A stretch of 64,000 nt of DNA from Ruegeria lacuscaerulensis (GTDB lineage: Bacteria > Pseudomonadota > Alphaproteobacteria > Rhodobacterales > Rhodobacteraceae). The translations under genes and the position numbers were made by a program. A model generated the notes under the pieces. It was not told the DNA's origin. It worked only from the letters and a program-made list of their open reading frames with translations, and did not search any database. This document shows, piece by piece, positions 27,686 through 46,835 of this stretch. Numbering within the stretch: position 1 is the stretch's first letter; each line of letters begins with the position of its first letter. Where the stretch lies: assembly GCF_013034685.1 (NCBI RefSeq), contig NZ_WQGO01000005.1, positions 124,001 to 188,000 on the forward strand, given 5' to 3'.

Positions 27686-29161
27686 TCAGGAAATCTCGCC
27701 CATGCAGAGGTATTTGATCTCGAGGAAATCCTCGGTCCCGTATTTCGAGCCTTCGCGGCCCAGACCGGATTGTTTGACACCGCCGAAGGGCGCGACCTCG
27801 GTCGAGATCAGACCGGTGTTGATGCCCACCATGCCCGATTCCAGCCCTTCGGCCACGCGCCAGACGCGCGCCAGATCACGGCTGTAGAAATACGAGGCCA
27901 GACCGAATTCGCTGTCGTTGGCCATGGCGACGACGTCGTCCTCGTCCTCGAACTTGAACAGGGGCGCGACAGGGCCGAAGGTTTCATCCTTTGCGACCAC
28001 CATGTCGCGGGTCACACCGGTCAGAACGGTGGGTTCAAAGAACGTGCCGCCAAGGTCCGAGCGTTTGCCGCCCAGCGTGACCGTTGCGCCCTTGGACACC
28101 GCGTCCGAGATATGTTCCTCGACCTTGGCGACGGCCGCGTCATTGATCAGCGGGCCGGTGGTGACACCGTCACCGAAACCGTCGCCCACGTTCAGGGCTT
28201 TGGTCTTCTCGGCCAGCTTGGCGGCGAATTCGTCATAGACGCCCGCCTGCACATAGATGCGGTTGGCGCAGACGCAGGTTTGGCCGTTGTTGCGGAATTT
28301 GGCGATCATTGCACCATCCACGGCAGCGTCCACGTCGGCGTCGTCGAACACGATGAACGGCGCGTTGCCACCCAGTTCGAGGCTCATCTTTTTGATCGTG
28401 CCTGCCGCCTGACGCATCAGGATCTGGCCAACACGGGTCGACCCGGTGAAGGTGATCTTGGCCACCTTGTCATTGGTGCACATCTCATTGCCCACGCCCG
28501 AGCTGTCTGTGCCGGGGATGACGTTGAACACACCTGCCGGGATGCCCGCACGTTCGCCCAGAACAGCCATCGCCAGCGCAGACAGAGGCGTCAGCGTTGC
28601 CGGACGGGCCACAAAGGTACAGCCTACAGCCAGTGCCGGACCAACCTTGCGGGCAATCATGGCGTTGGGAAAATTCCACGGGGTGATCGAACCGACCACG
28701 CCCACAGGCTGTTTCAGAACGACAATGCGTTTGTCACGCTGATGGCCGGGGATGACGTCGCCGTAGACCCGCTTGGCCTCTTCCGAGAACCACTCGATGA
28801 AAGACGCCCCGTACAGGATCTCGCCCCGCGCTTCGGCCCAGGGTTTGCCCATCTCGGCGGTCAGGATCGTGGCTAGATCGTCGGCGTTTTCCACCATCAG
28901 ATCGAACCATTTGCGCAGGATTGCGGCGCGCTCCTTGCCGGTTTGCGCGGCCCATTCTTTCTTTGCCGCATAGGCCGCGTCCACGGTTCGCGCGGTGCCT
29001 TCGATGCTGACATCGGTCACATTGGCGATCAGATCGCCGGTTGCAGGGTTGTAAACGGGAAAGGTCGCTTCACCCTCAACCCATGTGCCGTTGATATAGG
29101 CGCGGGTTTCCAGAAGGCTGGGATCTTTCAGCTCCAGCTTGGTCACTTTGGTATCCAGCAT
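27686..29161 (-). CDS. gabD: Succinate-semialdehyde dehydrogenase
   Basis: A 491-residue aldehyde dehydrogenase that oxidises succinate semialdehyde to succinate, the second step of GABA use. The catalytic Glu lies in MSLELGGNAPFIVF and the nucleophilic Cys in NNGQTCVCANRIYVQ; FTGSTRVGQILMRQAAG is the coenzyme segment. The FAPWNF-like motif is SITPWNFPNAMIARK. It starts 2 bp after the stop of gabT, so the two are one operon. Sequence and context favour GabD over other aldehyde dehydrogenases. Confidence 0.94.
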   Translation of the reverse strand: MLDTKVTKLELKDPSLLETRAYINGTWVEGEATFPVYNPATGDLIANVTDVSIEGTARTVDAAYAAKKEWAAQTGKERAAILRKWFDLMVENADDLATILTAEMGKPWAEARGEILYGASFIEWFSEEAKRVYGDVIPGHQRDKRIVVLKQPVGVVGSITPWNFPNAMIARKVGPALAVGCTFVARPATLTPLSALAMAVLGERAGIPAGVFNVIPGTDSSGVGNEMCTNDKVAKITFTGSTRVGQILMRQAAGTIKKMSLELGGNAPFIVFDDADVDAAVDGAMIAKFRNNGQTCVCANRIYVQAGVYDEFAAKLAEKTKALNVGDGFGDGVTTGPLINDAAVAKVEEHISDAVSKGATVTLGGKRSDLGGTFFEPTVLTGVTRDMVVAKDETFGPVAPLFKFEDEDDVVAMANDSEFGLASYFYSRDLARVWRVAEGLESGMVGINTGLISTEVAPFGGVKQSGLGREGSKYGTEDFLEIKYLCMGEIS

Positions 29162-29163
29162 GT

Positions 29164-30441
29164 TCAGGCTCCTTTGGCAGCGTCGACCGAGGCTTCGAGG
29201 ATATCGATCGCCTCGGCGAAGATCTCATCCTGCACCGTCAGCGGTGCGAGGAAGCGGATTACGTTCCCATATACGCCACATGTCAGCAGGATCAATCCGC
29301 GCTTAAGCGCCTCGGCCCGCACGGCGTTGGCCATCTCGGGGTTTGGTGCGCTACCGTCGGTGGTGTTGAACTCGGTCGCGATCATGAAGCCGGGGCCTCG
29401 AATGTCGACGATCTCGGGTGTACGGGCGCGGATCGATTCCAGACGTTGTTTCAGACGCGAGCCCAGCTCGTTTGCGCGGCCGCACAGGTCCTCTTCTTCG
29501 ATCACGTCCATCACCGCATGGGCGGCGGCGATGCCCAGCGGGTTGCCGCCATAGGTGCCGCCCAGACCGCCGGGTTGCGCCGCATCCATCAGGTCGGCGC
29601 GACCCGTGACCGCGGCCAACGGCAGACCGCCCGCCAGACCTTTGGCCATGGTGGTGATGTCGGCGGCCACGTCATAGGCTTCCATCGCGAACAAATTGCC
29701 GGTGCGGGCAAAACCCGTCTGCACTTCGTCTGCGATCATAACGATGCCGTGTTCGTCGCACAGGGCGCGCAAGCCGCGCATTAGCTCGGCCGGGGCGGGG
29801 TAAAAGCCACCTTCACCCTGAACCGGCTCGATGATGATGGCAGCAACGCGGCCCGGGTCCAGATCGGCCTTGAACAGTTTGGTCAGCGCGCCCAGCGAAT
29901 CCTCGGTCGAGGTGCCGTGCAGCTCAACCGGGAAAGGGACGTGATAGGTGTCGGGCATCATCGCGCCGAAGCCGGCCTTGTAGGGCTGCACCTTGCCGGT
30001 CAGCGACATGCCCATGAAGGTGCGGCCATGGAAGCCGCCGCCAAAGGCGATAACGGCGGGGCGGCCGGTGGCGGCACGGGCGATTTTGACAGCGTTCTCA
30101 ACCGCTTCGGCGCCGGTGGTCACAAAGACGGTCTTCTTGGTGAAATCACCCGGCACCTTTTCGTTCAGACGCTCGGCCAGACGGATGTAGTTTTCGTAAG
30201 GCAGAACCTGATGGCAGGTATGAGTAAAGTTCGCGGCCTGCGTCGTGACCGCCTCCATCACCTTGGGGTGGCAATGCCCGGTATTCACAACGGCTATGCC
30301 TGCGGCGAAATCGATGTAACGCTTGCCTTCGACGTCCCACACCTCGGAGTTCGCAGCGCGGTCCACATAGACCTGCGTCTGCATTCCCACGCCTTGCGCG
30401 ATCGATGTGTTGCGGCGTTCAGCAATCTGAGCATTCAGCAT
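29164..30441 (-). CDS. gabT: 4-aminobutyrate aminotransferase
   Basis: A 425-residue class III PLP aminotransferase. It starts with an ATG at 30441 and shows the family segments YIDFAAGIAVVNTGHCHPKV, FVTTGAEAVENAVKIARAATGRPAVIAFGGGFHGRT, IIEPVQGEGGF, VMIADEVQTGFARTG and the PLP lysine in ITTMAKGLAGGLPLAAVTG. It moves the amino group of GABA to 2-oxoglutarate. It is co-transcribed with gabD and divergent from a PuuR-like regulator 134 bp away, which probably controls it. Confidence 0.94.
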   Translation of the reverse strand: MLNAQIAERRNTSIAQGVGMQTQVYVDRAANSEVWDVEGKRYIDFAAGIAVVNTGHCHPKVMEAVTTQAANFTHTCHQVLPYENYIRLAERLNEKVPGDFTKKTVFVTTGAEAVENAVKIARAATGRPAVIAFGGGFHGRTFMGMSLTGKVQPYKAGFGAMMPDTYHVPFPVELHGTSTEDSLGALTKLFKADLDPGRVAAIIIEPVQGEGGFYPAPAELMRGLRALCDEHGIVMIADEVQTGFARTGNLFAMEAYDVAADITTMAKGLAGGLPLAAVTGRADLMDAAQPGGLGGTYGGNPLGIAAAHAVMDVIEEEDLCGRANELGSRLKQRLESIRARTPEIVDIRGPGFMIATEFNTTDGSAPNPEMANAVRAEALKRGLILLTCGVYGNVIRFLAPLTVQDEIFAEAIDILEASVDAAKGA

Positions 30442-30575
30442 ATTGCGTCCTTTCGGGTTGTCGGGCGCGCGCCCGTAAATCTGATCGCGTGACTGTAGTA
30501 GCCACAGGTTTGAGCGAAAGCCTGTTTCTTGCCAACCATAAGCCCTTGATTTACGGTCTCGGCACCCCTCAAGTG

Positions 30576-31157
30576 ATGCGGATAGTGAACATGAAGAACG
30601 CCAATCAGGATGATCTGACCCTTGGATTGCGCCTGCGCGCCCTGCGTGAACGCGCGGGTCTGTCGCAGCGGGCGTTGGCCAAAAAGTCGGATGTGCCGAA
30701 CTCGACCATCTCGCTGATCGAGTCGGGCAAGATGAACCCCTCGGTCGGAGCGTTGCGGCGGATTTTGCAGGGTATTCCGATCGGCATGTCCGACTTTTTC
30801 TCGTTCGAGATCGAGGCCGAGCAGACCGTGTTCTATGCCGCAGAAGACCTGACCGAGATCGGCAAGGGCGGGCTGTCGCTGCGGCAGGTGGGATCGAACT
30901 TGCACGGGCGCGCGATGATGATCTTGCAGGAAACCTATGATCTGGGCGCGGATACCGGACGTGTAATGTATGGCCACGAGGCCGAAGAGGGCGGCGTGGT
31001 GATTTCGGGTCGGGTCGAAGTTACGGTGGGCGATCATCGCAAGGTGCTAGGGCCGGGGGACGCCTATTATTTCGACAGCCGCACCCCGCACCGGTTCCGT
31101 CAGGTTGGACCGGAAAAATGCCGGATCGTCAGCGCCTGTACCCCGCCGACTTTCTGA
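30576..31157 (+). CDS. PuuR-like XRE-cupin regulator
   Basis: A 193-residue regulator with an N-terminal helix-turn-helix (LRLRALRERAGLSQRALAKKSDVPNSTISLIESGKMNPSVGALRRIL) and a C-terminal cupin (GHEAEEGGVVISGRVEVTVGDHRKVLGPGDAYYFDSRTPHRF). The whole chain, including the ending RIVSACTPPTF, is close to E. coli PuuR, the repressor of putrescine and GABA catabolism (which ends RIISAHTPTTF). I chose the ATG at 30576; one at 30591 is possible, and sequence further upstream is not conserved. It is divergent from gabT, consistent with control of gabTD and perhaps of the operon downstream. Confidence 0.88.
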   Translation: MRIVNMKNANQDDLTLGLRLRALRERAGLSQRALAKKSDVPNSTISLIESGKMNPSVGALRRILQGIPIGMSDFFSFEIEAEQTVFYAAEDLTEIGKGGLSLRQVGSNLHGRAMMILQETYDLGADTGRVMYGHEAEEGGVVISGRVEVTVGDHRKVLGPGDAYYFDSRTPHRFRQVGPEKCRIVSACTPPTF

Positions 31158-31817: not shown

Positions 31818-31886
31818 TCCGTCATATGCTGATCTACAGACGGATCGTGGGGCACCGGAATGGGTGTGTTCTTTAACAGGCAAATC

Positions 31887-32225
31887 ATGAACGACGCTCC
31901 CTTTCCAACTTTCACGATCCGCCAGAACGACTTGGCCATCCTCGCCGCTGAAAACAGGATCGGAGACTATCCGGTCGCTGTGCGCACCGCGCGCGAGGTT
32001 GTTAGCGGCGGCTTTGCCAACCACTCGGCGCATCCCAACACCTGGACGGTCTATTTTCTGGTCGATGGTCAGTGGGCGCTGGTGGAATCCACGCGCGGTC
32101 TGCGGCGGGAATGGTCCAGTCTGGACCGGTTGGAGAAATGGCTGCGTAGTTGCGGGTTCCGGTTCTTTTGGGTGCGCAACGATATCGACTTTGTGGAATC
32201 CCCCGGCGAGGAGGAGACCGACTAA
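31887..32225 (+). CDS. Small hypothetical protein
   Basis: A 112-residue protein not recognised. It has no membrane segment and is Trp- and Arg-rich in the second half (WTVYFLVDGQWALVESTRGLRREW, then RLEKWLRSCGFRFFWVRNDIDFVES), which looks like a compact alpha/beta fold. The ATG at 31887 follows AGG by 7 bp; an ATG at 31860 would add 9 residues. Codon use resembles its neighbours. It lies 69 bp after the PhnB-like gene and 110 bp before the nitrilase-family gene. Confidence 0.55.
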   Translation: MNDAPFPTFTIRQNDLAILAAENRIGDYPVAVRTAREVVSGGFANHSAHPNTWTVYFLVDGQWALVESTRGLRREWSSLDRLEKWLRSCGFRFFWVRNDIDFVESPGEEETD

Positions 32226-32335: not shown

Positions 32336-33304
32336 ATGACCCCTTTTGCGATAACCGGAATTCAGATGCATGTGGGCGCGTTGCAGTCGAATGTAGACGC
32401 GATGCTGCACCGGATCGACATTATGATGGCGCGGTTTCCCTGGACCCAGATGGCGCTGTTCAGCGAGTTGGCCCCCTATGGTCCGCTCGACCGGTTTGCC
32501 CAGCCTTTTCCCAATGACGATCTGTCGCGTTTTCAGGACGCTGCGCGTCGCTATGGAATTTGGCTGATCCCCGGCTCGATGTTCGAAAAGCGCGAGGACG
32601 GGCGGATTTTCAACACCTCGGTGGTGATCAACCCCGAGGGTGAGATCGTTTCGAAATACTCGAAGATGTTCCCGTTCAAACCCTACGAACAGAGCATTTC
32701 GTCCGGCACGGAATTCTGCATTTTTGACGTCCCGGATGTGGGTCGGTTCGGCCTGTCGATCTGCTATGACATCTGGTTCCCCGAAACCACTCGCCACCTG
32801 ACCAGCCAGGGGGTCGAGGTTCTGCTGCATCCGGTGCTGACCGGCACCACTGACCGTGAGGCCGAATTGTCGATTGCAAAGGCCACCGCGGCGCAGTTCC
32901 AGTGTTACGTGTTCGACGTGAACGGTCTGGCCGCTGGTGGAGTTGGGCGGTCGCTGGTGGTTGATCCCTCGGCCACGGTGCTTCACCAGTCGGCGGGGCA
33001 AGAGGACATCTTCCCCATCGAGATCGACCTGGATCAGGTACGACGTCAGCGCGAGGTCGGGCTGAAAGGGCTGGGGCAGGTTCTCAAAAGCTTCCGCGAC
33101 CGCGAGGCGGATTTCCCGGTTTATGACCGGGCCAGCGGAGCAGATGCCTATTTGCACACGCTGGGGCCGCTGCGCATCCCGCAAAAGGGCGATGTTGCCG
33201 GTGTCGCCGCTTCCGACCCCAGAACAGCGCTGGGATACAACGAAGATACCTCGACCAAGCCCGATAATCTTTATCTCTACAAAGGGCGCTCAGGCACAGA
33301 CTGA
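32336..33304 (+). CDS. Nitrilase-superfamily carbon-nitrogen hydrolase
   Basis: A 322-residue amidase-type hydrolase. The Glu-Lys-Cys triad is visible as Glu44 in LFSELAPYG, Lys110 in KYSKMFPFKPYE and Cys143 in LSICYDIWFPE. Members hydrolyse or condense amide-like bonds, including N-carbamoylputrescine. The substrate is not evident here, but the neighbouring amino-acid decarboxylase makes an amide or carbamoyl derivative of a polyamine a reasonable guess. The gene is followed after 44 bp by the decarboxylase and is probably the first of a four-gene set. Confidence 0.85.
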   Translation: MTPFAITGIQMHVGALQSNVDAMLHRIDIMMARFPWTQMALFSELAPYGPLDRFAQPFPNDDLSRFQDAARRYGIWLIPGSMFEKREDGRIFNTSVVINPEGEIVSKYSKMFPFKPYEQSISSGTEFCIFDVPDVGRFGLSICYDIWFPETTRHLTSQGVEVLLHPVLTGTTDREAELSIAKATAAQFQCYVFDVNGLAAGGVGRSLVVDPSATVLHQSAGQEDIFPIEIDLDQVRRQREVGLKGLGQVLKSFRDREADFPVYDRASGADAYLHTLGPLRIPQKGDVAGVAASDPRTALGYNEDTSTKPDNLYLYKGRSGTD

Positions 33305-33348
33305 TACCAGCGCAGCTTTTCGGGAATTGCAGAAAGGACATTGATCTC

Positions 33349-36081
33349 ATGCACGGCTTATCCGACAGCGAAAAGCTCCACACCATCTCGGACTATTACA
33401 GCGCCTCGCAATTGCGGGCGGACAGGTGGAGCGCGCTGCGGGAAACAGCCGAATCTCTGGATCAAAACGCCGGTGATTCTGATCGGGACAGGGCGCGCCG
33501 TCTGCTTCAGGCACTGGCCCCTATCGAGGTTTATTTCGCGTTTCCTGGCGCGTCGGCCTTTGACTATTTGCGCAGGTTGCTGGACCATGGCAATTTCGGC
33601 GATTTCTCGACCGCCGTGCGCCGGGTCTCGCGCGCGCTGACATCGGGGGCGTATCGGCGTCGCTCGATCCCTCTGATCGCGGATGAGACCGAGGGCGACG
33701 AGTTCGAGGATGAAGCGGCTCAAAGCCACGAAGCCCGTGCGCTGGGGCGACCCTATTTCGAGGTAATGATCGTCGACAATGTCAACGAACATCAGGAACG
33801 GTTCCTGCAATCCAGCCTGCAACGGATGCGCCGCAGCGAAGACCCGTTCATTTATGAGACCGTCGTGGTGCCCAGCGTCGAGGATGCGCTGATTGGCGTT
33901 CTGTTCAACCAGAATGTGCAGGCCGTGATCGTTCGTCCGGGTCTGAGCCTGAAGTCCAAGAACGAAACCAACGTGTTGGGGCGCTATATCAGCCTGTACG
34001 GCGAAGGCGCAGATCTTGATGCGCTGTCCCCTTCGGAATACGGGCCGGAAACCTGTCGCCGGATTGGAATGCTGCGCCCTGAGCTGGATGCCTATCTAAT
34101 CACCGACCGTTCGGCCGAGGATATCGCCGGGCTTGATCTGGGCCTGTGCCGACGGGTGTTCTATAATCAGGAAGATTTTCTGGAACTGCATCTGAACATC
34201 CTGCGCGGGGTGCAGCGGCGGTTCAAGACCCCGTTCTTCACCGCGCTGAAAGAATATTCCAAGCAACCCACCGGCGTTTTCCACGCCATGCCGATCAGCC
34301 GCGGCAAGTCGATCAGCCGTAGCCATTGGATTCAGGATATGGGGGCGTTCTACGGGTCGAACATCTTTATGGCCGAAACCTCGGCCACATCGGGCGGGCT
34401 GGATTCTCTGCTGGAGCCACGCGGCCCCATCAAGGAAGCGCAAGAGGCCGCCGCCCGCGCGTTCGGATCAAAACAGACCTTCTTTGCTACCAACGGCACC
34501 TCGACCTGCAACAAGATCGTGGTGCAGGCGCTGGTGCGCCCCGGCGATATCGTTCTGGTCGACCGTGACTGCCACAAATCGCACCATTACGGCATGGTGC
34601 TGGCGGGGGCGAGCGTAGTCTATATGGACAGCTACCCTCTGCACGATTACTCGATGTACGGTGCGGTGCCGATCCGCGAGATCAAGCACAAGCTGCTGGC
34701 CCTGAAAGCCGAGGGCAAGCTGGATCAGGTACGCATGGTGCTGCTGACCAACTGCACCTTTGATGGCATCGTCTACAACGTTCAGCGGGTGATGCAGGAA
34801 TGTCTGGCGATCAAGAAAGACCTTGTGTTCCTGTGGGATGAAGCCTGGTTCGGTTATGCCCGTTTCGCACCCAACACGCGCGTGCGAACGGCGATGCGCT
34901 CGGCCAATATCCTGCGTGAACAGTTCCGCTCCGCAGACCATTCCGAAGCCTATGCAGCCCAACAGGTCGAGCTGGAGGGCGCGGATGATGAGACCCTGCT
35001 GAACACCCGTCTGATCGCCCCGCCGGACGCACGGGTGCGTGTCTATGCCACGCAATCCACACACAAGACGCTGACCGCGCTGCGGCAGGGCTCGATGATC
35101 CACGTCAACGACCAACAGTTCAAAGGCGCTGTGGAAGAAGCGTTTCACGAAGCCTACATGACGCACACCTCGACCTCGCCCAACTATCAGATCATCGCTT
35201 CGTTGGATGTTGGCCGCAGGCAGGTCGAGATCGAAGGTTATGAGTTCGTCCAGCGTCAGGTCGAAAGCGCCATGGCGATCCGCCGGGCGGTCACGACGCA
35301 TCCGCTGCTGAAGAAATACTTCAAACTGGTCACTGCAGGCGACATGATCCCCGAGGAGTACCGCGAAAGCGGTATGACCAGCTATTTCGATCCCGATCAG
35401 GGCTGGGCGGACGTTTGGGATTGCTGGGCGAAGGATGAATTTGTTCTGGATGCCACGCGGATTACGCTGCATGTGGGCGCAACGGGCTGGGACGGTGATA
35501 CGTTCAAGACCAAGATCCTGATGGACAAATACGGCATCCAGATCAACAAGACCTCGCGCAATACCGTGCTGTTCATGACCAATATCGGCACCACGCGCAG
35601 CTCGGTCGCCTATCTGATCGAGGTGCTGGTCGAGATCGCCAAGGAGCTGGACGATCTGATGGACGACGCGTCCAAGATGGAAAAGCGCGCCTTTGACAAG
35701 CGAGTCCGCAACCTGAGCGAACACGTCCCGCCACTGCCCGACTTCAGCCGCTTCCATGATGCGTTCCGCTGTGTTGAAGGCACCGAGGCGGGCGATATCC
35801 GCACCGCGTTCTTCCTGTCCTATGACGAGGACAATTGTGACTACGTGGAACCCGATCATGACATGCTGGACCGGCTGGAGGCGGGCGAGGAAATGGTCTC
35901 GGCCACCTTCGTGATCCCGTACCCGCCGGGCTTTCCTATTCTGGTGCCGGGGCAGGTGATTAGCCCGGAAATTCTCAAATTCATGCAGGAACTGGACGTG
36001 TCGGAGATCCACGGTTTCCGCGCCGATCTGGGCCTGCGCATTTTTACCGAAGACGCTTTGAAATCAGTCAAGAAAACATAA
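33349..36081 (+). CDS. Orn/Lys/Arg decarboxylase, large form with N-terminal extension
   Basis: A 910-residue PLP decarboxylase of the bacterial inducible (fold I) group, which includes AdiA, CadA and SpeC/F. About 130 residues precede the REC-like wing domain (PYFEVMIVDNVNEHQ). The PLP domain contains ATNGTSTCNKIVVQAL, LVDRDCHKSHHYG, LWDEAWFGYARFAP and the Schiff-base Lys573 in ATQSTHKTLTALRQ. The C-terminal domain ends EIHGFRADLGLRIF. It is longer than the usual 710-760 residues. Arginine is a likely substrate given the region, but lysine and ornithine cannot be excluded. It is followed by an ATP-grasp gene after 17 bp, suggesting that the amine produced is further ligated. Confidence 0.88.
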   Translation: MHGLSDSEKLHTISDYYSASQLRADRWSALRETAESLDQNAGDSDRDRARRLLQALAPIEVYFAFPGASAFDYLRRLLDHGNFGDFSTAVRRVSRALTSGAYRRRSIPLIADETEGDEFEDEAAQSHEARALGRPYFEVMIVDNVNEHQERFLQSSLQRMRRSEDPFIYETVVVPSVEDALIGVLFNQNVQAVIVRPGLSLKSKNETNVLGRYISLYGEGADLDALSPSEYGPETCRRIGMLRPELDAYLITDRSAEDIAGLDLGLCRRVFYNQEDFLELHLNILRGVQRRFKTPFFTALKEYSKQPTGVFHAMPISRGKSISRSHWIQDMGAFYGSNIFMAETSATSGGLDSLLEPRGPIKEAQEAAARAFGSKQTFFATNGTSTCNKIVVQALVRPGDIVLVDRDCHKSHHYGMVLAGASVVYMDSYPLHDYSMYGAVPIREIKHKLLALKAEGKLDQVRMVLLTNCTFDGIVYNVQRVMQECLAIKKDLVFLWDEAWFGYARFAPNTRVRTAMRSANILREQFRSADHSEAYAAQQVELEGADDETLLNTRLIAPPDARVRVYATQSTHKTLTALRQGSMIHVNDQQFKGAVEEAFHEAYMTHTSTSPNYQIIASLDVGRRQVEIEGYEFVQRQVESAMAIRRAVTTHPLLKKYFKLVTAGDMIPEEYRESGMTSYFDPDQGWADVWDCWAKDEFVLDATRITLHVGATGWDGDTFKTKILMDKYGIQINKTSRNTVLFMTNIGTTRSSVAYLIEVLVEIAKELDDLMDDASKMEKRAFDKRVRNLSEHVPPLPDFSRFHDAFRCVEGTEAGDIRTAFFLSYDEDNCDYVEPDHDMLDRLEAGEEMVSATFVIPYPPGFPILVPGQVISPEILKFMQELDVSEIHGFRADLGLRIFTEDALKSVKKT

Positions 36082-36098
36082 GGGACTGGGAGGACCAT

Positions 36099-37547
36099 AT
36101 GCCTAAGAAGGTGCTGAAGAACATCTCGGAAATCCGCCGGTATTTCCACACCAACAAGGACCCGATCTATTTTGTGTCGGCGACCAATTTCAACTTGTTG
36201 GGGTTGGATGAGTGGGTGATGAACTTCACCTATATCTGCTACATGGATTGCTTTGACGGGCGGCATCCGAACGTGTTCGTGCCCTCTGAGATGCCGCATG
36301 ACGAATTCCAGTCGATCGAAGACATCAACAACTATCTGCTACAGCACAAAGAGGTCATCGACCTGGTCAAGCGGCGCGGTGGCAAGCCCAAGTTCGTGTT
36401 CCTGATGTTCGATGAGACGACCGAGAAACTGGTCAAGGAACTGGGCGGTCAGCTGTGGTTCCCCAAAGCCAAGCTGCGCACCAAATGCGACAACAAGATC
36501 GAAACGGTCCGCATCGGCAACAAGGCGGGTGTGCCGTCGGTGCCCAATACGCTGAGCGTGGTCAAAAGCTATGATCACCTGAAGAAAATTTGCGACAAAG
36601 CCGGGTTGGGGCATGATCTGGTGCTACAATCGGCCTTTGGCGACAGCGGCCACACCACTTTCTTCATCAAATCCGAGGCGGATTTCAACAAACACAAGGA
36701 TGAGATCGTAGGCGAGGGCGAGATCAAGATCATGAAGCGGATCGATTGTCGCGGTGCGGCGATCGAGGCCTGCGCGACGTCCGAAGGCACTATTGTGGGA
36801 CCGCTGATGACCGAGCTCGTGGGCTTCAACGAACTCACCCCCTATCGCGGCGGTTGGTGCGGGAACGAGATATTCTCGACTGCCTTCCCACCCAAGGCGC
36901 GCGAACAGGCGCGGCAGCTGACCTTCCAGTTCGGCGAGGAACTGCGCAAATCCGGTTATCGTGGCTATTTCGAACTGGATTTCCTGATCGACAAGAAAAC
37001 CGATGAGCTGTGGCTGGGTGAGTTGAACCCGCGCATCACTGGGGCCAGTTCGATGACCAACCATGCGGCTTTTGCCCATGCCGACGCGCCCCTGTTCCTG
37101 TTCCACCTGCTGGAATTTTCGAAGAAGCCCTTCGAGTTGGATGTCGAGGAACTGAACGCCCGTTGGGCCGACCCTGACATGATCGACAGCTGGTCGCAGA
37201 TGGTGATCAAGCATACCGATGACAGCGTCGACCGCATCACGCAGGCCCCGCAATCGGGCATCTACAAGATGCTCGAAGATGGCCGTGTGGTGTTTGACCG
37301 CTTCGACTATCACCGCCGCGCAGTGGGAGAGAATGAGGCGTTCTTTCTGCGCATCTCAAATGTCGGCGACTACCGCTATGAAGGGGCCGATCTGGGCATT
37401 CTGGTGACGCGGGGACGGTCAATGACCAAGGGGTTCAAGCTGACGGACAAGTCGAAAAAGTGGATTCACGGCATCACGTCGGCCTACGCCGCCGAACCGC
37501 TGCCAGCCGCGCAGCCGATGGAAGATCCTGCGTTCAAAATCATGTAG
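36099..37547 (+). CDS. ATP-grasp ligase, biotin-carboxylase-like annotation
   Basis: A 482-residue ATP-grasp enzyme. The nucleotide- and metal-binding elements are at VLQSAFGDSGHTTFFI, IKIMKRIDCRG and ELDFLIDKKTDELWLGELNPRITGASSMTNHAA, where the E-x-N pattern would bind magnesium. Such proteins are often labelled biotin carboxylase, but the biotin-dependent partner subunits are absent and a carboxylate-amine ligase is as likely. In this context it could join an amino acid to the amine made by the decarboxylase; that is inference. The ~120-residue N-terminal domain (FVSATNFNLLGLDEWVMNF) is family-specific. It starts 17 bp after the decarboxylase and ends 8 bp before the next gene. Confidence 0.8.
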   Translation: MPKKVLKNISEIRRYFHTNKDPIYFVSATNFNLLGLDEWVMNFTYICYMDCFDGRHPNVFVPSEMPHDEFQSIEDINNYLLQHKEVIDLVKRRGGKPKFVFLMFDETTEKLVKELGGQLWFPKAKLRTKCDNKIETVRIGNKAGVPSVPNTLSVVKSYDHLKKICDKAGLGHDLVLQSAFGDSGHTTFFIKSEADFNKHKDEIVGEGEIKIMKRIDCRGAAIEACATSEGTIVGPLMTELVGFNELTPYRGGWCGNEIFSTAFPPKAREQARQLTFQFGEELRKSGYRGYFELDFLIDKKTDELWLGELNPRITGASSMTNHAAFAHADAPLFLFHLLEFSKKPFELDVEELNARWADPDMIDSWSQMVIKHTDDSVDRITQAPQSGIYKMLEDGRVVFDRFDYHRRAVGENEAFFLRISNVGDYRYEGADLGILVTRGRSMTKGFKLTDKSKKWIHGITSAYAAEPLPAAQPMEDPAFKIM

Positions 37548-37555
37548 AAGGCCTC

Positions 37556-38545
37556 ATGGCGCTTGTTTTTCGCTCAATCGACGAGGAACAGCCCGGTCCC
37601 AAGCTGGCCGGGCTGTTTGCCGAATACTGGCCCGCCTACCATAAATGGTGGGTGCAAGAGGGGTATTCGGCGCGGCCCACCTATCGCGAATGCTTGCGAG
37701 CGTTGCAAACGCACATGCCCGAGATCCTGCCGCTATATGAAGAGGTGGTTGAACTGGTGGGCGGCAGCGACAGTCAGGCGCGGTTTCTCAGCTTTTATTG
37801 CCCGCCCAAATATCTGTCGGGGTGTAGCCAGGCGATCTGGCGTGGCAAGACACCCATTTTGGTGCGCAACTACGACTACCACCCCAAAACCTTTGACGCT
37901 GCATTGTTGAAAACCCGCTGGGGCGGGCGCGGCGTGATCGGGATGAGCGATGGCATTCTGGGCCTGCTGGATGGCATCAACGATACCGGCCTTGCGGTCT
38001 CATTGACCTTTGGCGGTCGGCGCGAGGTGGGCGACGGCTTCGGCGTGCCGCTGATCTTGCGCTATGTGTTGCAGACCTGTGAGACCACGGCACAAGCGGT
38101 AGATGCGCTCTGCCGCATTCCCTGCCACATGAGCTATAACGTCACCGTTCTGGACGCGAAATACAATCACAGCACGGTCTATCTTGCCCCTGACCGGCAC
38201 CCTCAAATCTCAGATGTGCCGGTGGCGACAAACCATCAGGGGCAGGTTGAGTGGTCCAAACATGCGCGGTTTACCGCAACGGTCGAACGGGAACGGTTTC
38301 TGCTGAACCGCCTGAACCAGCACCCCGAAAGCGAAAAGCGTTTCATCGACGCGTTCCTGCGCCCGCCGCTTTATTCCACCGCCTTCAAATCCGGGTTCGG
38401 GACGCTTTATACAGCCGTCTACCGGCCCGCGAAGAAACAGCTGCAACTTCTGTGGCCCGGCGCTGCATGGGACGTGTCTTTTGACCTGTTTGCGGAAGAT
38501 GATCTGACCTTGTTGCTGCCCGATGCGGCTGAAGCGGTGGTTTGA
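37556..38545 (+). CDS. C45/AAT-type Ntn hydrolase
   Basis: A 330-residue protein of the acyl-CoA:6-APA acyltransferase (peptidase C45) type. In this family the precursor cleaves itself before a Cys that becomes the N-terminal nucleophile. Here Gly89-Cys90 in PPKYLSGCSQAIW fits that site, followed by RNYDYHP and NDTGLAVSLTFGGRREVGDGFG, both typical. The mature enzyme would hydrolyse or transfer an amide-linked acyl group. The ATG at 37556 follows a GAAGG site and lies 8 bp after the ATP-grasp gene. It is the last gene of the set, which suggests it acts on the amide made by the ligase. Confidence 0.82.
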   Translation: MALVFRSIDEEQPGPKLAGLFAEYWPAYHKWWVQEGYSARPTYRECLRALQTHMPEILPLYEEVVELVGGSDSQARFLSFYCPPKYLSGCSQAIWRGKTPILVRNYDYHPKTFDAALLKTRWGGRGVIGMSDGILGLLDGINDTGLAVSLTFGGRREVGDGFGVPLILRYVLQTCETTAQAVDALCRIPCHMSYNVTVLDAKYNHSTVYLAPDRHPQISDVPVATNHQGQVEWSKHARFTATVERERFLLNRLNQHPESEKRFIDAFLRPPLYSTAFKSGFGTLYTAVYRPAKKQLQLLWPGAAWDVSFDLFAEDDLTLLLPDAAEAVV

Positions 38546-38643: not shown

Positions 38644-40623
38644 TTACAATCGGATGCGCTTCCTTTTCCGGAACTGCAATTTCACCCAGGCGAATGCGAT
38701 CGGGTTTAGCTGAGCAACGTAGCCAGCCCTCCACCGGCTGCCTTTCGCATTTCGGTAATGAGATTTGCGTTCGCCAACGCGGGTCAAGCTTTCTCCGGTG
38801 GTATCGCCCACACCTGAAAATATGCGGACCTTGTTGAAGCGGACGGCATCGTGGCGGTGCGGTTTGCTTAGAAACTGTCGAAGATCCTTTTCGTCCCTTG
38901 GATCGGCATATTTAGCGAGCACATCGATGGGTATGGCCGAAGTGACCGACTTGATGGCACGCAGCGCGCCATCCTGAATCTTTTTGGCGCGTTGGAGGTT
39001 TTCAGCTTCTGCCGTACTGACGTCAGACGTCTTCCAAGCGATTTCGCCCTGCGGTTTTTCCTGTAGACCCAGAACGCTGCCATGATCGGCAGAAAAGAAG
39101 AATTCTACGATATCGCGGAAGTCTTCGACCCAAGGATACATGAACAGAGGAAGGCCATTGGACGCGGCGAAACTTTCGTACTCCAGCCCATTTCGGCGCA
39201 GAATAGAGGCAGCCTGAGCGCTCGTGCCAAAATAAAGACCCAGAACATGTGCGTCCTTGCCGATAATCTCATCAATAGACCGCTGTAAACTGCCGCGCCA
39301 CCCGACGTCGAAGATGGCTGTGTGTGTGCCTTCAGGGAAGACCGAGCGGTAGTAGGTGGACAGAACCTCCTTTTCATGCGCGAAAGATTGATAGAAAGCG
39401 TCAGGGTTTTCACGCAACAGATTCAGGATGGTGCGGCGGCGCTCTTTTGTCAGTTCGTCCGTGCCAGATAGGCCAGCGTCTGCAAATAGAGATTTCAACA
39501 GCGGGCCTGCGGAAATCTTCCCGAGAAACTCGTCCAGCGTTTGCGATCCCTCAAGCGTGGCATGCAACATTCCCGCGATTGTATCAGGGTCTAACTCGGT
39601 AAAAGGAAGGGTCAACAAACGCCGGGAAGCAGCGACATATTGAGTTTCATATCCTTGCGGCCAAAGCAGATCGAAAACAGCTTTTGGAAACATTCCATCC
39701 CGTGCCAGAAACGCGAGCCGCGAAATACCTTGTTTGTCCATTTCCCGCTTTATCCAAATCAACAGCGATGTAATGAGCGGAGCAATCATCAAGGCGCCAA
39801 ACGCTTCAAGATACTGGTCGTCGGACAGTTTTCGAAAGTCGACATTTTCCGAGTCGTAGTGATGTGTTTCCAAGTAGTTGGCGGTGAAAATCTGTGAGAT
39901 CGGCTGCGTTCCATTCAGCAGACTAGTGTGTCGCCGGGGTTTTGGAGATCGCGTTGGCAGGTCTTTGCTGGCCAGTAGCACATGCGATATGAACCCTGCC
40001 TGCGTCGCCATTTTCCCGTCTGCATGACGGTTGTCGCCAATGTGGAGGATCTGGTTGCGAGGTACATCAAAATGCGCTGCGACGTCGTCAAACAGGCTGC
40101 CCGTGTGCTTGGTCTTACCCTGTTCACCGGAGACGAAGACGCGCTCCCATCCGGTTATACCCTTTTGCGTCAGGAGATCTTCCAACTCGTCTTTCGGCAG
40201 GTACATGTCCGAGGTGATCACCCAGCGCGACTTACTGTCCTGAATACGAGTCAGAAGTTTCCTGCCCAGGCTGGTCACATGCAATAGATCGCGTTCAGTC
40301 CGAAGTTCCAGCTGTTTGATCTTGTCAGCCTGATCTTTTGTGCAATTTGTCAGTTGCGCGAAACAGGCATAGATCTGATCCAGTGTCACGTCTTCGATCC
40401 GCTGTGCGGAAGCATCCTCTCGCGCCATTGCCTCGGCGCCAGTGCGATAGTCTTTGAAATGTTGGGTAGCTAGGAGGACCTCAGGATGATCCGCTATGAA
40501 TTCGAACAGATCAACAGGAGACTTGCAGTGGCGGAACAGAAGCGTGTCGAAAATATCGACCGATAGAAAATTAAAGGAATCGACGCGTTCGAGCAGTTGA
40601 TCGCTTGGAGCCAAGTTGTTCAT
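38644..40623 (-). CDS. HAD-superfamily hydrolase of polysaccharide clusters
   Basis: A 659-residue protein. The N-terminal ~220 residues are a HAD domain: nucleophile motif SVDIFDTLLF, WVITSDMYLP (motif II) and HIGDNRHADGKMATQAG (motif IV). The remaining ~430 residues include a segment (RLAFLARDGMFPKAVFDLLWP) seen in large HAD proteins of surface-glycan loci and an IFDVGWRGSLQRSI motif, but no known enzyme activity is assigned. It is the last gene of the minus-strand polysaccharide cluster. A phosphatase or glycan-chain processing role is inference. Confidence 0.75.
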   Translation of the reverse strand: MNNLAPSDQLLERVDSFNFLSVDIFDTLLFRHCKSPVDLFEFIADHPEVLLATQHFKDYRTGAEAMAREDASAQRIEDVTLDQIYACFAQLTNCTKDQADKIKQLELRTERDLLHVTSLGRKLLTRIQDSKSRWVITSDMYLPKDELEDLLTQKGITGWERVFVSGEQGKTKHTGSLFDDVAAHFDVPRNQILHIGDNRHADGKMATQAGFISHVLLASKDLPTRSPKPRRHTSLLNGTQPISQIFTANYLETHHYDSENVDFRKLSDDQYLEAFGALMIAPLITSLLIWIKREMDKQGISRLAFLARDGMFPKAVFDLLWPQGYETQYVAASRRLLTLPFTELDPDTIAGMLHATLEGSQTLDEFLGKISAGPLLKSLFADAGLSGTDELTKERRRTILNLLRENPDAFYQSFAHEKEVLSTYYRSVFPEGTHTAIFDVGWRGSLQRSIDEIIGKDAHVLGLYFGTSAQAASILRRNGLEYESFAASNGLPLFMYPWVEDFRDIVEFFFSADHGSVLGLQEKPQGEIAWKTSDVSTAEAENLQRAKKIQDGALRAIKSVTSAIPIDVLAKYADPRDEKDLRQFLSKPHRHDAVRFNKVRIFSGVGDTTGESLTRVGERKSHYRNAKGSRWRAGYVAQLNPIAFAWVKLQFRKRKRIRL

Positions 40624-40797
40624 ACCTGTTATTTAAGTTCGAGCCCTGTTGAAGGTGGCAACCAATTGAAACCGGGATCTGACCACCGCATTTTATCGCG
40701 GAAATGCGCCGGCCTTCAATGTATCGGTCCGCTCAGGCGCCGAGCCCAAGTGGTTTTTCCGCAGGCTCGTACGTTAGTTGAACCTGCGGGAATTATC

Positions 40798-41772
40798 TTA
40801 TTTTGGACGACAGACCACTGCATCATGCACATGCCCGAAGCCTTTAGGAATAATCTCGACGACTTCCACGAATTTTGACCAGTGGTTTTGAATGTACTGG
40901 GGTGTATGGCCAATATCGCGATAATATTCCGGGTCGGTTACGTCTGCGATGTCTGGGTTCGGGTCGGGTGCGTCTACGATGCCTTGCAACATGTAGTGTT
41001 CGACCGCGTAGGGGTTTTTCGACCACTCGGCGGTCGACACGCTATACGGGCCGTGAACAGACAGAACCATCAAGCCACGGGTTATGCGCGACAATTCTTG
41101 GAGCCAGTGATTTTGGTCAGGTTCTGCAAGATGGGTCAGCACACTATGAGAGTAGACCAGATCGAATTGATCGTCATCGTAAGGAGTTGCGCTGTATGGA
41201 TCGAGCACTGTGTAGTCCCCGAACGGCATGTTCTCCTTGCAATAGGCAATATTGACAGGGTCAACGTCGGCGCCAAACAAGTTTGGTTTCAGTATGTCGG
41301 GGATATGTCTGGCGATGCGTCCGCAACCGACGCCCCAATCAAGTGTAACGGTGTCCTTGGTTAGCGGCAGCCCCATAACCTCGCTGATGTTCATGACAAC
41401 GGTCATGTCTTCTATGCCGCCTGAAATAAACGACTTATTCAGCGCATCCGGTTCAGATCCATCTGTGCCCACGACACAGGGATTATACTTACCCTGTATC
41501 CTGCCAATATTGTCGCGCGACGGTATGGGGGTTTCGTAGTCAGGAGCAATGTCGACATTGGGTGTCCGAGCCAGCGGCCATGTAGCAGCAACCGCGCTCC
41601 AGTTCCCTACGATCGCCTTGTGTAGATTCAAGGCAAGTTCCGCAGGTTGCGCTGGATAAAGCGAACCGTCACCTGTCAGCGCCTGTTTTAGCTCGCTAAC
41701 TTGTGCGATCAATTCGTCAACGCTGCGCTTGATGTGTTTGTTTCGAATCCGCGATTTCATAGGGTTTTTCAT
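40798..41772 (-). CDS. Class I SAM-dependent methyltransferase
   Basis: A 324-residue protein. The SAM-binding motif I reads TLDWGVGCGRIARHIPD, then NLFGADVDPVNIAYCKENMPFGDY and DLVYSHSVLTHLAEPDQNHWLQELSRI, the usual acidic and post-motif segments. The N-terminal ~110 residues look helical and may target the protein to a sugar or lipid acceptor. It is in the sugar-nucleotide cluster and may methylate the glycan or its precursor. A D-arm-like stretch of bases lies upstream but is not a tRNA gene. Confidence 0.85.
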   Translation of the reverse strand: MKNPMKSRIRNKHIKRSVDELIAQVSELKQALTGDGSLYPAQPAELALNLHKAIVGNWSAVAATWPLARTPNVDIAPDYETPIPSRDNIGRIQGKYNPCVVGTDGSEPDALNKSFISGGIEDMTVVMNISEVMGLPLTKDTVTLDWGVGCGRIARHIPDILKPNLFGADVDPVNIAYCKENMPFGDYTVLDPYSATPYDDDQFDLVYSHSVLTHLAEPDQNHWLQELSRITRGLMVLSVHGPYSVSTAEWSKNPYAVEHYMLQGIVDAPDPNPDIADVTDPEYYRDIGHTPQYIQNHWSKFVEVVEIIPKGFGHVHDAVVCRPK

Positions 41773-41881
41773 CTTACGGTGCCTTCCGTGTGCTCTACCG
41801 GCTATGCCACAATATTCTGAGTATCAAAATCGGGTAACTTCCGAAGCTGACCTGCAGAAATCCTGGGCCAGTTTCCGCAAA

Positions 41882-42439
41882 TTACTCAGTTTCTTTTACT
41901 GCATGGGTCGAACTGTCCAGATCGTTCCACGTTTGGTCTTTCTGCGAAACTTCCTGAGCTGCCATAGGCCAATTGATGCCGATCGCCGGATCATCCCAAC
42001 GCAGACCACGCTCACTTTCCGGCGCGTATGCCGAGCTGACCGGATAGATAATTTCCGTGTCATCAGTAAGGCTCATGAAGCCGTGGGCGAAGCCTTTCGG
42101 CACATACATCATCTTGCGGTTCTCAGCGGTAAGTTCAGCGCCGAACCATTGACCGAACGTCTTTGACCCATCCCGAAGATCGACGATGACATCGAAGATC
42201 GCACCTTTTACGCAGCGCATCAGCTTGACCTCGGCGTGGGGGGGAAGTTGATAATGCATACCCCGCACTGTGCCCTTCGACATGGTCAATGAATTGTTGA
42301 TCTGCACGAACTTTCCGACAAGGCCATGTGCTTTGAACTCGTCCTCGCAGAACATGCGGGCAAAGAAGCCGCGGTCATCGCCGCGTTTTTCCAGCTCGAT
42401 CAGGTAAGCCCCTTCAAGCGGGGTCGGGGTGAACAGCAT
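41882..42439 (-). CDS. rfbC: RmlC-type sugar 3,5-epimerase
   Basis: A 185-residue cupin epimerase. Signature segments are GAYLIELEKRGDDRGFFARMF, FVQINNSLTMSKGTVRGMHYQ with the catalytic His, VKGAIFDVIVDLRDGS and YVPKGFAHGFMSL. It inverts C3 and C5 of a 4-keto-6-deoxy sugar nucleotide. It follows the SDR gene directly. Because the adjacent nucleotidyltransferase is a cytidylyltransferase, its substrate may be CDP- rather than dTDP-linked. Confidence 0.88.
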   Translation of the reverse strand: MLFTPTPLEGAYLIELEKRGDDRGFFARMFCEDEFKAHGLVGKFVQINNSLTMSKGTVRGMHYQLPPHAEVKLMRCVKGAIFDVIVDLRDGSKTFGQWFGAELTAENRKMMYVPKGFAHGFMSLTDDTEIIYPVSSAYAPESERGLRWDDPAIGINWPMAAQEVSQKDQTWNDLDSSTHAVKETE

Positions 42440-43495: not shown

Positions 43496-43501
43496 GCTAC
43501 G

Positions 43502-44272
43502 TCACCACACTTTCCATTTTGCTTCGTTGTTGGACCAAAGACGGTTCAAATGCTCCTTGTCCCGCAGGGTATCCATGGGTTGCCAGAAACCATGGTGGTA
43601 CCAAGCCCGCAACTGATCGTCATTTGCAAGGTTTTCCAGAGGTTCGCGCTCCCAAACCGTGAAGTCATCGTCGATATAGTCCACGATTTTCGGAGAAACG
43701 ATGAAATATCCGCCATTGATCCAGCCGCCGTCGCCAACCGGCTTTTCCTGAAACCCGAGCACCTTCTCGTCTTGAAGGTCCAGTGCGCCAAACCGCCCCG
43801 GAGGCTGAACGGCGGTGACGGTAGCCAGTTTTCCGTGTTGTTTATGGAATTCGATGGCAGCAGTGATGTTAACGTCAGCGACGCCGTCCCCATAGGTGAT
43901 GCACACGGCCTCGTCATCTTTGAAATACCGCGAAGCCCGCTTGATCCGACCACCAATCTGAGAGTTTTCGCCGGTTTCAACCAGTGTAACGGTCCAAGGC
44001 TCGGCTCGCATTTCATGGACGGTCATGCTGTTTTGTTTGATGTCAAAAGTGACGTCGGCATTGTGCAAGAAATAGTTTTGGAAATACTCTTTGATAAAGT
44101 AGCCCTTATATCCCAGGCAAATAACGAAATCATTGATGCCATGGTGGGAATAGGTTTTCATGATATGCCACAAGATCGGTTTGCCGCCTATTTCAACCAT
44201 CGGCTTGGGGCGCAATCCGGTTTCTTCTGCAAGGCGCGTACCGAACCCGCCGGCAAGAATAACAGCCTTCAT
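43502..44272 (-). CDS. rfbF: Glucose-1-phosphate cytidylyltransferase
   Basis: A 256-residue nucleotidyltransferase that makes CDP-glucose. The N-terminus [64 protein letters not shown] is the RfbF signature; the GxGTRL-E-KPM motif binds CTP and metal. TYGDGVADV and [18 protein letters not shown] complete the active site. It supplies the activated sugar for the neighbouring SDR and epimerase genes. No CDP-glucose 4,6-dehydratase of the usual RfbG type was recognised next to it. Confidence 0.93.
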
Positions 44273-44390
44273 TTTTCTATCTTTCAGTTCCTGGGTGTTT
44301 GGATTTATTGAACGCTAATAATTTCTTCGAGTATTTATTGTGGTTTACGCTTCCCAAATGCTGCTGCCCTTTGCAACAAGTATTCCATTC

Positions 44391-46823: not shown

Positions 46824-46835
46824 CCTGAGCCTCAT

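What the first reader, a model, noticed from the sequence alone, without database searches (positions are those of the whole stretch)
32336..38545. Uncharacterised operon: nitrilase, large Orn/Lys/Arg decarboxylase, ATP-grasp ligase and Ntn hydrolase
Four genes on one strand with gaps of 44, 17 and 8 bp encode an amidase-type hydrolase with an intact Glu-Lys-Cys triad, a 910-residue PLP decarboxylase, an ATP-grasp enzyme and a C45/AAT-type self-processing hydrolase with a Gly-Cys site. A decarboxylase makes an amine, an ATP-grasp enzyme could join it to a carboxylate, and two hydrolases could trim or remove the product. I know no named pathway with this set. A polyamine (agmatine-like) conjugation or turnover route is a testable inference.
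Basis: partly seen in the sequence, partly recalled or inferred. Interest (0 to 1): 0.75.

Follow-up and report, generated by a model that had tools for sequence, protein, structure and literature searches.

The report
Unnamed omega-amino-acid operon of marine bacteria
A conserved, uncharacterised set of four enzymes in sea bacteria probably makes, joins and splits GABA-like amino acids rather than polyamines, and its decarboxylase belongs to a branch of a known family whose substrate has not been established.

Summary
The four genes are real and belong together. Of 295 genomes of the host's family, 45 have the ATP-grasp gene (ATPG), 42 the decarboxylase (DC) and 40 both, always within 110 bp. 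ATPG and the C45 hydrolase share a locus in 80 of 80 named loci. I found no description of the set.

NCBIfam calls ATPG 'biotin carboxylase', but it shows neither biotin-carboxylase domain. The agmatine/polyamine idea is weakly supported: all 101 DC-family proteins readable at one position carry Asn where the Lys/Orn enzymes CadA, SpeC and SpeF carry the Glu postulated to bind the side-chain amine. A related clade of DC sits beside AspT-type Asp/Ala antiporters in all 8 loci found.

Where DC is missing, neighbours include other routes to omega-amino acids: a lysine-monooxygenase-type flavoenzyme, an arginine/2-ketoarginine pathway, a biotin-dependent lactamase-like set. GABA transaminase is nearby more often than chance predicts.

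Best reading (0.35): a GABA/5-aminovalerate module. DC makes GABA or its amide from a glutamate-type amino acid, the nitrilase hydrolyses omega-amino amides, and ATPG and C45 make and break omega-aminoacyl amides. No activity is shown; a Puu-like protecting-group pathway (0.25) is the main rival.

The parts
32336..33304 (+). NIT: carbon-nitrogen hydrolase (nitrilase superfamily), proposed omega-amino-amide amidase
   Evidence: Pfam CN_hydrolase 102 bits; present in 76 of 80 named loci, the other 4 are contigs that begin inside DC; in L145 the relative (52%) lies directly before the gene of an L-amino-acid oxidase/monooxygenase-type enzyme on the same strand
33349..36081 (+). DC: large PLP decarboxylase of the Orn/Lys/Arg superfamily, substrate unknown, proposed glutamate/glutamine type
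   Evidence: OKR_DC_1 257 bits; best solved relative 9n0n/9n0o, 807 bits; Asn at the CadA Glu526 position
36099..37547 (+). ATPG: ATP-grasp ligase (NCBIfam PRK06524, labelled biotin carboxylase)
   Evidence: 752 bits, cut-off 684; weak CPSase_L_D2 match in 25 of 25 members; no biotin-carboxylase N or C domain reported
37556..38545 (+). C45: Ntn amidohydrolase/acyltransferase with self-processing Cys
   Evidence: AAT 121 bits, C45_proenzyme 180 bits; predicted model pLDDT 84.3, best fold match isopenicillin N acyltransferase 2x1c E 7.5e-14
31860..32225 (+). small unknown protein (121 aa), possible accessory
   Evidence: no Pfam/NCBIfam hit; relatives of 61% and 63% lie beside the ATPG/C45/NIT genes of L146 and L149
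31296..31817 (+). glyoxalase-superfamily protein, possible accessory
   Evidence: Pfam Glyoxalase 40 bits; superfamily relatives adjoin NIT in L146, L147 and L148 (29-39%)
30405..31157 (+). XRE-cupin regulator of the PuuR type (real start probably further in)
   Evidence: PRK09943 PuuR 126 bits, below its cut-off of 211; relative present in 27 of 80 loci
29164..30441 (-). GABA transaminase GabT
   Evidence: PRK07495 822 bits, cut-off 724
27686..29161 (-). succinate-semialdehyde dehydrogenase
   Evidence: TIGR01780 722 bits, cut-off 646

Best explanation
An accessory, patchily distributed operon of omega-amino-acid (GABA / 5-aminovalerate) metabolism. Shown: the four genes, their families, catalytic motifs, tight linkage and recurring neighbours. 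Inferred: DC belongs to a branch of the Orn/Lys/Arg decarboxylase superfamily that no longer reads a basic side chain and removes the alpha-carboxyl of a glutamate-type amino acid (glutamate, glutamine or a gamma-substituted glutamine), giving GABA or 4-aminobutanamide. NIT hydrolyses omega-amino amides to the omega-amino acid, as the amidase of the lysine monooxygenase pathway does (recalled). ATPG activates the omega-amino acid with ATP and joins it to an amine, and C45 splits that amide again, so the pair makes and breaks omega-aminoacyl conjugates (as Ebony and Tan do with beta-alanine in insects; recalled). GabT and SSADH next door send freed GABA to succinate. The partner amine and the purpose of the conjugation are unknown.
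For: DC (E<=1e-60) and ATPG (E<=1e-30) co-occur in 40 of 295 genomes (DC in 42, ATPG in 45), and in 40 of 40 the matched stretches lie within 110 bp; in a phylum sample of 398 all 11 ATPG genomes have DC. ATPG and C45 in one locus in 80 of 80. DC-family Asn at the CadA Glu526 position: 98 of 102 by pattern, and of the other 4, three also carry Asn and one lacks the stretch in my gene call; Glu526 is a postulated lysine-binding residue (PMC5607190, passages read). A related clade DC2 (one clade at 100/100) lies immediately beside AspT-type exchangers in all 8 loci found, with aspartate 4-decarboxylase in 2 and GltS two genes away in 1. Without DC, neighbours include other omega-amino-acid routes: lysine-monooxygenase-type flavoenzyme 957 bits (L145); AruI, ALDH and agmatinase-family genes (L115); LamB/YcsF and carboxyltransferase set with GabT (L150/L171). 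GabT at >=50% identity in 31 of 80 loci, though the host has only 9 class III aminotransferases in 4.6 Mb.
Against: No substrate was tested. AdiA, an arginine enzyme, also lacks Glu at the 526 position (Thr), so Asn does not exclude arginine. AspT adjacency concerns DC2, not DC; the tree does not resolve how the ATPG-linked DCs relate to DC2 and warns of long branches. Of the 8 adjacent exchangers two were judged by Pfam (L168, L169), the L174 one is below the AspT cut-off (372 against 547) and five rest on BLAST alone (29-57%). In the ectoine cluster L139 (and by gene order and size only L141) the four genes, DC included, lie among ectoine-degradation genes, which suggests diaminobutyrate or another substrate. 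NIT is absent from 4 of 18 further loci (L143, L144, L156, L157). PuuR-type regulators fit polyamines too, and L140 has a histone-deacetylase-family gene upstream, a family that includes acetylpolyamine amidohydrolases (recalled). GabT at >=50% identity is missing from 49 of 80 loci. The host also has two group II (PF00282) decarboxylases, which may already cover glutamate.
Confidence: 0.35

Rival explanations
1. Protecting-group catabolism, an ATP-grasp version of the Puu gamma-glutamylation pathway: DC makes a diamine from lysine, ornithine or arginine; ATPG puts an acyl group on one amine; a transaminase and an aldehyde dehydrogenase oxidise the other end; C45 removes the group and frees GABA or 5-aminovalerate.
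For: PuuR-type regulator in 27 of 80 loci; GabT and SSADH next door; a class III aminotransferase directly after C45 in 12 of 80 loci (PRK07483 in L112); arginine-pathway neighbours in L115, L117, L120.
Against: Asn at the Glu526 position and loss of PGHxGG in the DC family; the L145 flavoenzyme route would reach 5-aminovalerate without any aldehyde, so no protection is needed there; NIT has no role in this scheme.
Confidence: 0.25
2. Polyamine (agmatine-like) conjugation or turnover, with the conjugate itself as the product.
For: The family of DC is called Orn/Lys/Arg decarboxylase; arginine genes in the Shinella-type clusters; a histone-deacetylase-family gene upstream of NIT in L140, a family with acetylpolyamine amidohydrolases (recalled).
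Against: Same residue evidence; among the neighbours I annotated none was named an aminopropyltransferase, agmatine deiminase or polyamine transporter (only selected genes were scanned).
Confidence: 0.12
3. A scavenging operon for an imported small peptide-like compound or compatible solute; C45 and NIT release the amino acid, and ATPG has a side role.
For: Transporters join the operon: TAXI-TRAP in 29 of 80 loci, Opp-type ABC genes in 5-6 of 80; ectoine degradation genes around it in L139; M19 dipeptidase and Opp-type genes in L145.
Against: Transporter types differ between loci; an ATP-consuming ligase found with C45 in all 80 named loci is hard to explain as a side role.
Confidence: 0.15
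4. ATPG is a biotin-free carboxylase (carboxyphosphate type, like PurK or carbamoyl-phosphate synthetase) that N-carboxylates a guanidino or amino group, after which NIT and C45 hydrolyse the product.
For: Closest solved sequences of the profile are biotin carboxylases and carbamoyl-phosphate synthetases, all weak (E 1e-7 to 8e-4); arginine-type neighbours in some loci.
Against: Similarity is at superfamily level; the ATPG model is poor (pLDDT 57.4), so its fold matches (TM about 0.2) carry no weight.
Confidence: 0.08

Closest known systems
Rv2531c-type probable amino acid decarboxylase (PDB 9n0n, 9n0o)
   Same: Full-length relative of DC, 807 bits over residues 18-906; same catalytic motifs and same Asn in the printed alignment
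   Different: Its activity is itself not clarified (PMC12910592, passages read; the structure paper is not held); the passages read mention no such operon
E. coli Orn/Lys/Arg decarboxylases AdiA, CadA, SpeC, SpeF
   Same: Superfamily and PLP lysine, His and Asp residues
   Different: 24-26% identity to DC; DC has an extra N-terminal region, Asn for CadA Glu526 and FHAxPxxRGxS in place of PGHxGG/PGHQHG
PuuA/PuuD gamma-glutamylation pathway of putrescine (recalled)
   Same: Ligase and amide hydrolase in one pathway; PuuR-type regulator; GABA transaminase
   Different: Ligase is an ATP-grasp and hydrolase an Ntn C45 enzyme; the decarboxylase and nitrilase are additional
DavB/DavA lysine monooxygenase pathway (recalled)
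   Same: In L145 the NIT relative is directly next to a monooxygenase-type gene; GabT and glutarate-type genes recur in other loci
   Different: ATPG and C45 have no counterpart
Isopenicillin N acyltransferase / Tan (C45; Tan recalled)
   Same: C45 family and best fold match
   Different: Substrate unknown; only 14% identity in the structural match

Membership tests
Orn/Lys/Arg decarboxylase superfamily (PF01276) | Pfam profile above cut-off with PLP lysine, His and Asp | tested here: met
   257 bits, cut-off 27; residues aligned
Lysine/ornithine decarboxylase proper | Glu at CadA position 526 (postulated side-chain binding) | tested here: not met
   Asn in the window and in all 101 of 102 family members that have the stretch
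Lysine/ornithine/arginine decarboxylase proper | NCBIfam equivalog or subfamily cut-off | tested here: not met
   Best LdcC 212 bits, cut-off 968
Biotin carboxylase | Biotin_carb_N and Biotin_carb_C domains | tested here: not met
   Reported for 0 of 25 members at E<=10, although PRK06524 'biotin carboxylase' is above cut-off
ATP-grasp superfamily | ATP-grasp profile and E-x-N-x-R metal/ATP motif | tested here: inconclusive
   CPSase_L_D2 in 25 of 25 members but below cut-off in the window (16.6 against 19.8 bits); E308, N310, R312 invariant in 25
C45 Ntn hydrolases | Profile above cut-off and nucleophilic Cys | tested here: met
   180 bits, cut-off 85; Cys90 invariant in 40 of 40
Nitrilase superfamily | CN_hydrolase profile with Glu-Lys-Cys triad | tested here: met
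   102 bits, cut-off 23.2, triad motifs in the window protein; over 79 NIT proteins the Lys pattern matched 79, the Cys pattern 77 and the Glu pattern, written narrowly, 31
Puu gamma-glutamylation pathway | Gamma-glutamyl ligase of the glutamine synthetase type and PuuD hydrolase | not tested
   No search for PuuA or PuuD was made in the host genome
5-aminovaleramidase (DavA) | Hydrolysis of 5-aminovaleramide | not testable with these tools
   Position next to a monooxygenase-type gene in one locus only (L145)

The most novel reading that the evidence does not exclude
DC and its relatives (DC2 and the solved Rv2531c type) are a branch of the Orn/Lys/Arg superfamily that decarboxylates acidic or amide amino acids; the window operon runs a new glutamine-type route to GABA through 4-aminobutanamide and couples it to an ATP-driven synthase/hydrolase pair for omega-aminoacyl conjugates.
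Probability: 0.22. Interest if true: 0.78.

Novelty: new variant of a known kind. Interest (0 to 1): 0.6.

Why it matters
The operon recurs in many marine Rhodobacterales, in a reduced form on rhizobial plasmids (in one case beside nifHDKE) and in other proteobacteria, yet its ligase is filed under a name that its domains do not bear out and its decarboxylase family has no established substrate. One set of in vitro assays would assign four protein families at once, correct an annotation, and give a first testable substrate class for the decarboxylase branch whose solved member is still 'unknown'.

Tried and rejected
Polyamine route as the main reading: lowered after the residue comparison and the contexts of the related clade. 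Biotin carboxylase: rejected on domains. PLP oxidative decarboxylase giving an amide (Cap15-like, recalled): kept only as an idea, no evidence. ATPG structure: prediction from 34 sequences reached pLDDT 57.4 and its fold search gave TM about 0.2; not used. Viral contigs: 14 stretches matched a pattern, none encoded a relative. Plasmid relatives of C45 and NIT without ATPG gave no clear substrate in the six regions opened, except a NIT relative (48%) in a region with an AruI-type gene in Ensifer. Glutamate-type transporters after C45 in L116 (DctA/GltP-like 364/324 bits, glutamate/aspartate binding protein 211 bits, each below its cut-off) fit the reading but are too weak to carry it. Literature: searches listed no paper whose title or abstract start names this operon or ATPG; only listings were seen (one search listed an azaserine paper that mentions a C45 family peptidase, not read), except passages of PMC12910592 and PMC5607190. 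Locus L155 gave no gene calls with my caller and was dropped; L142 ends before C45 and is not counted. My ORF caller is a simple codon-usage script; starts may be off. Distant contexts were annotated on selected genes only, ten per family search.
Full report
What is there. The four ORFs are at the stated places with gaps of 44, 17 and 8 bp, once the C45 start is set at ATG 37556, where most homologues begin. Family scans give a nitrilase-superfamily hydrolase (NIT), a 910-residue Orn/Lys/Arg-superfamily decarboxylase (DC), the NCBIfam family PRK06524 labelled 'biotin carboxylase' (ATPG) and a C45 Ntn hydrolase. Immediately upstream lie a 121-residue unknown, a glyoxalase-superfamily gene and a PuuR-like regulator, and divergently GabT and succinate-semialdehyde dehydrogenase. 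ATPG is 98-99% identical to the copies of several Ruegeria genomes, so the host is probably a Ruegeria or close to one.

Is it one unit? Yes. By tblastn (E<=1e-8) all 80 have ATPG, DC and C45; 76 have NIT, and the 4 without it (L043, L090, L103, L107) are contigs that begin inside DC. By my gene calls the spacing is: NIT-DC median 72 bp, 60 of 72 at most 100 bp; DC-ATPG median 19 bp, 78 of 80 at most 100 bp, largest 3428 bp; ATPG-C45 median 9 bp, 71 of 78 at most 100 bp, largest 2386 bp. Exceptions in order include L044, where other genes stand between DC and ATPG, and L055, L058, L066, with an extra gene before C45. In an even sample of 295 genomes of the host's family (294 genera), ATPG at E<=1e-30 is in 45 and DC at E<=1e-60 in 42; 40 have both, and in all 40 the matched stretches lie on one contig with gaps of at most 110 bp (Fisher p 2e-41, not corrected for phylogeny). 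The two DC genomes without ATPG are G856 (62% complete, DC at a contig end with NIT beside it, L170) and G914 (a different DC type, see below). ATPG without DC: G687, G691, G749, G827, G846. The other genome of the host's own genus in the sample lacks both, so the operon is accessory. In a sample of 398 genomes of the phylum, ATPG is in 11 and DC in 17; all 11 have DC, and the other 6 carry the second DC type.

The ligase. ATPG is not a biotin carboxylase by its parts: over 25 diverse members, CPSase_L_D2 matches weakly in 25 but Biotin_carb_N and Biotin_carb_C are reported in none, even at E<=10 (the program's filters drop most matches above about 0.1). The ATP-grasp Glu/Asn/Arg residues (E308, N310, R312) are invariant in all 25. 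Nearest solved sequences are biotin carboxylases and carbamoyl-phosphate synthetases at E 1e-7 to 8e-4. The structure model was poor (pLDDT 57.4) and I do not use its matches.

The hydrolases. The C45 model is good (pLDDT 84.3) and its best fold matches are isopenicillin N acyltransferase (2x1c, 2x1d, 2x1e), then N-acylethanolamine acid amidase, acid ceramidase, bile salt hydrolases and penicillin V acylases: the fold of enzymes that split or exchange amides. NIT resembles several amidases only distantly.

The decarboxylase. The closest solved relative is the 'probable amino acid decarboxylase' 9n0n/9n0o (807 bits). A 2026 review lists 9N0O as Rv2531c and says the structural study did not clarify its activity (PMC12910592, passages read). 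Aligned with E. coli AdiA, CadA, SpeC and SpeF, DC keeps the catalytic His, Asp, Trp and Lys but is only 24-26% identical to each. CadA Glu526, a postulated lysine-binding residue (PMC5607190, passages read), is Glu in SpeC and SpeF, Thr in AdiA and Asn in DC. Asn was found by pattern in 98 of 102 DC-family proteins, many of them close relatives; of the remaining 4, L114, L118 and L119 also have Asn and L093 lacks the stretch in my gene call. The PGHxGG-type motif of the E. coli enzymes is replaced by FHAxPxxRGxS in 100 of 102. A second type, DC2 (48-49% identical), forms one clade with 100/100 support, but the branches between it and the ATPG-linked DCs are unresolved and the program warns of long branches. 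In all 8 DC2 loci found (2, 6) the gene immediately beside it is an AspT-type exchanger: by Pfam in L168 and L169, by NCBIfam below the AspT cut-off in L174 (372 against 547), and by BLAST alone in L175-L179 (29-57% identity to the L169 copy). The L169 exchanger is above the AspT cut-off and has GltS, also above its cut-off, three genes away; aspartate 4-decarboxylase is present in L168 and L177. This is the layout of decarboxylase/antiporter systems for acidic amino acids, and the main reason for proposing a glutamate-type substrate for the family.

Contexts. In the 80 loci, a GabT relative at >=50% identity occurs in 31 and any class III aminotransferase in 41; among the 61 loci of at least 19 kb the numbers are 27 and 35. 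The host has 9 class III aminotransferases in 4.6 Mb, so about 0.04 per 20 kb would be expected there; I did not measure other genomes. A TAXI-TRAP transporter is present in 29 of 80 and an FMN-type glutamate synthase relative in 11 of 80. Where DC is missing, other genes appear. In L145 a flavoenzyme matching the solved L-amino-acid oxidase/monooxygenase at 957 bits stands on one strand in the order C45, NIT, flavoenzyme, with ATPG divergent (that this is a lysine 2-monooxygenase type is recalled). In Shinella (L115) ATPG and C45 lie among an AruI decarboxylase (737 bits, cut-off 500), an agmatinase-family enzyme, aldehyde dehydrogenase, D-amino acid dehydrogenase and a racemase-arginase fusion, with a 60% NIT relative about 7 kb away on the other strand; Roseateles (L117) and Sinorhizobium RAC02 (L120) have the same order. 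L146-L148 have GabT-type, PuuR-type and succinate-glutarate CoA-transferase-like genes (527 bits in L147, cut-off 750), the aldehyde dehydrogenases of L147 and L148 being nearest to alpha-ketoglutaric semialdehyde dehydrogenase (527-529 bits, cut-off 770), and L146 an acyl-CoA dehydrogenase whose C-terminal motif looks like glutaryl-CoA dehydrogenase (motif recalled; no NCBIfam cut-off is reached). L150/L171 have LamB/YcsF, biotin carboxylase and carboxyltransferase subunits plus GabT. With DC, the module of L139 lies in an ectoine degradation cluster: a DoeA equivalog (670 bits, cut-off 613), an AstE/AspA-type gene and a PRK07482 aminotransferase; L141 has the same order by size and BLAST, but its DoeA/DoeB-type genes were not scanned. 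L140 has a histone-deacetylase-family gene upstream, which would fit acetylated polyamines (recalled). Most of the DC-free contexts point to omega-amino acids (GABA, 5-aminovalerate, 4-guanidinobutyrate) as the node at which NIT, ATPG and C45 act; the ectoine and L140 cases do not. NIT is not universal: of 18 further loci with ATPG and C45, some of them close relatives, 14 have it (L138-L141, L145-L153, L158) and L143, L144, L156, L157 do not.

Mechanism. I commit to a GABA/5-aminovalerate module: DC supplies GABA or its amide from a glutamate-type amino acid; NIT hydrolyses omega-amino amides; ATPG joins the omega-amino acid to an amine at the cost of ATP; C45 splits the conjugate; GabT and SSADH burn the GABA. 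Only the anatomy and linkage are shown; every reaction is inferred. The main weaknesses are that nothing fixes the amine partner, that Asn at position 526 does not exclude arginine (AdiA has Thr), that DC2's substrate is itself inferred from neighbours, and that the host has two other (group II) decarboxylases that might already make GABA. The Puu-like protecting-group scheme remains a serious rival.

Known or new. No family model names the set, and the listings of the searches made show no paper on it; the library lacks most subscription journals. Each enzyme belongs to a known superfamily, so I file it as a new variant of a known kind.

Noticed in passing
window 36099-37547: NCBIfam PRK06524 is an equivalog labelled 'biotin carboxylase', but biotin-carboxylase N or C domains were reported for none of 25 members; the name is probably wrong.
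   Followed up: partly
L113, L114, L118, L119: A divergent DC-ATPG-C45 set without NIT lies on rhizobial plasmids; in L118 (R. leguminosarum Vaf10) it starts about 1 kb from nifH, divergent, and is followed by an ABC transporter and an amidase. Seven Sinorhizobium medicae plasmid records match only 39% of ATPG, in two pieces.
   Followed up: partly
L174, L175, L176, L178: In one genus with 7-8 Mb genomes the DC2 gene has an AspT-like exchanger beside it and a second one on its other side, two genes away, in the four genomes seen; in L174 the genes between are a DUF1275 and a sulfate-permease-family gene (Pfam scan run on L174 only).
   Followed up: partly
L115:12785-14569: A fusion of an ornithine-racemase-like domain (393 bits, cut-off 480) with a C-terminal arginase-like domain (45 bits) in an arginine catabolic cluster.
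   Followed up: no
window 31860-32225: A 121-residue protein without any family hit; relatives of 61-63% identity sit between ATPG and C45 on the opposite strand in L146 and L149.
   Followed up: no
window 38644-46835: Downstream genes on the other strand look like polysaccharide or nucleotide-sugar genes (methyltransferase-, epimerase- and sugar nucleotidyltransferase-like by reading the translations; the first, 38644-40623, has a weak HAD hit); not part of the operon.
   Followed up: no
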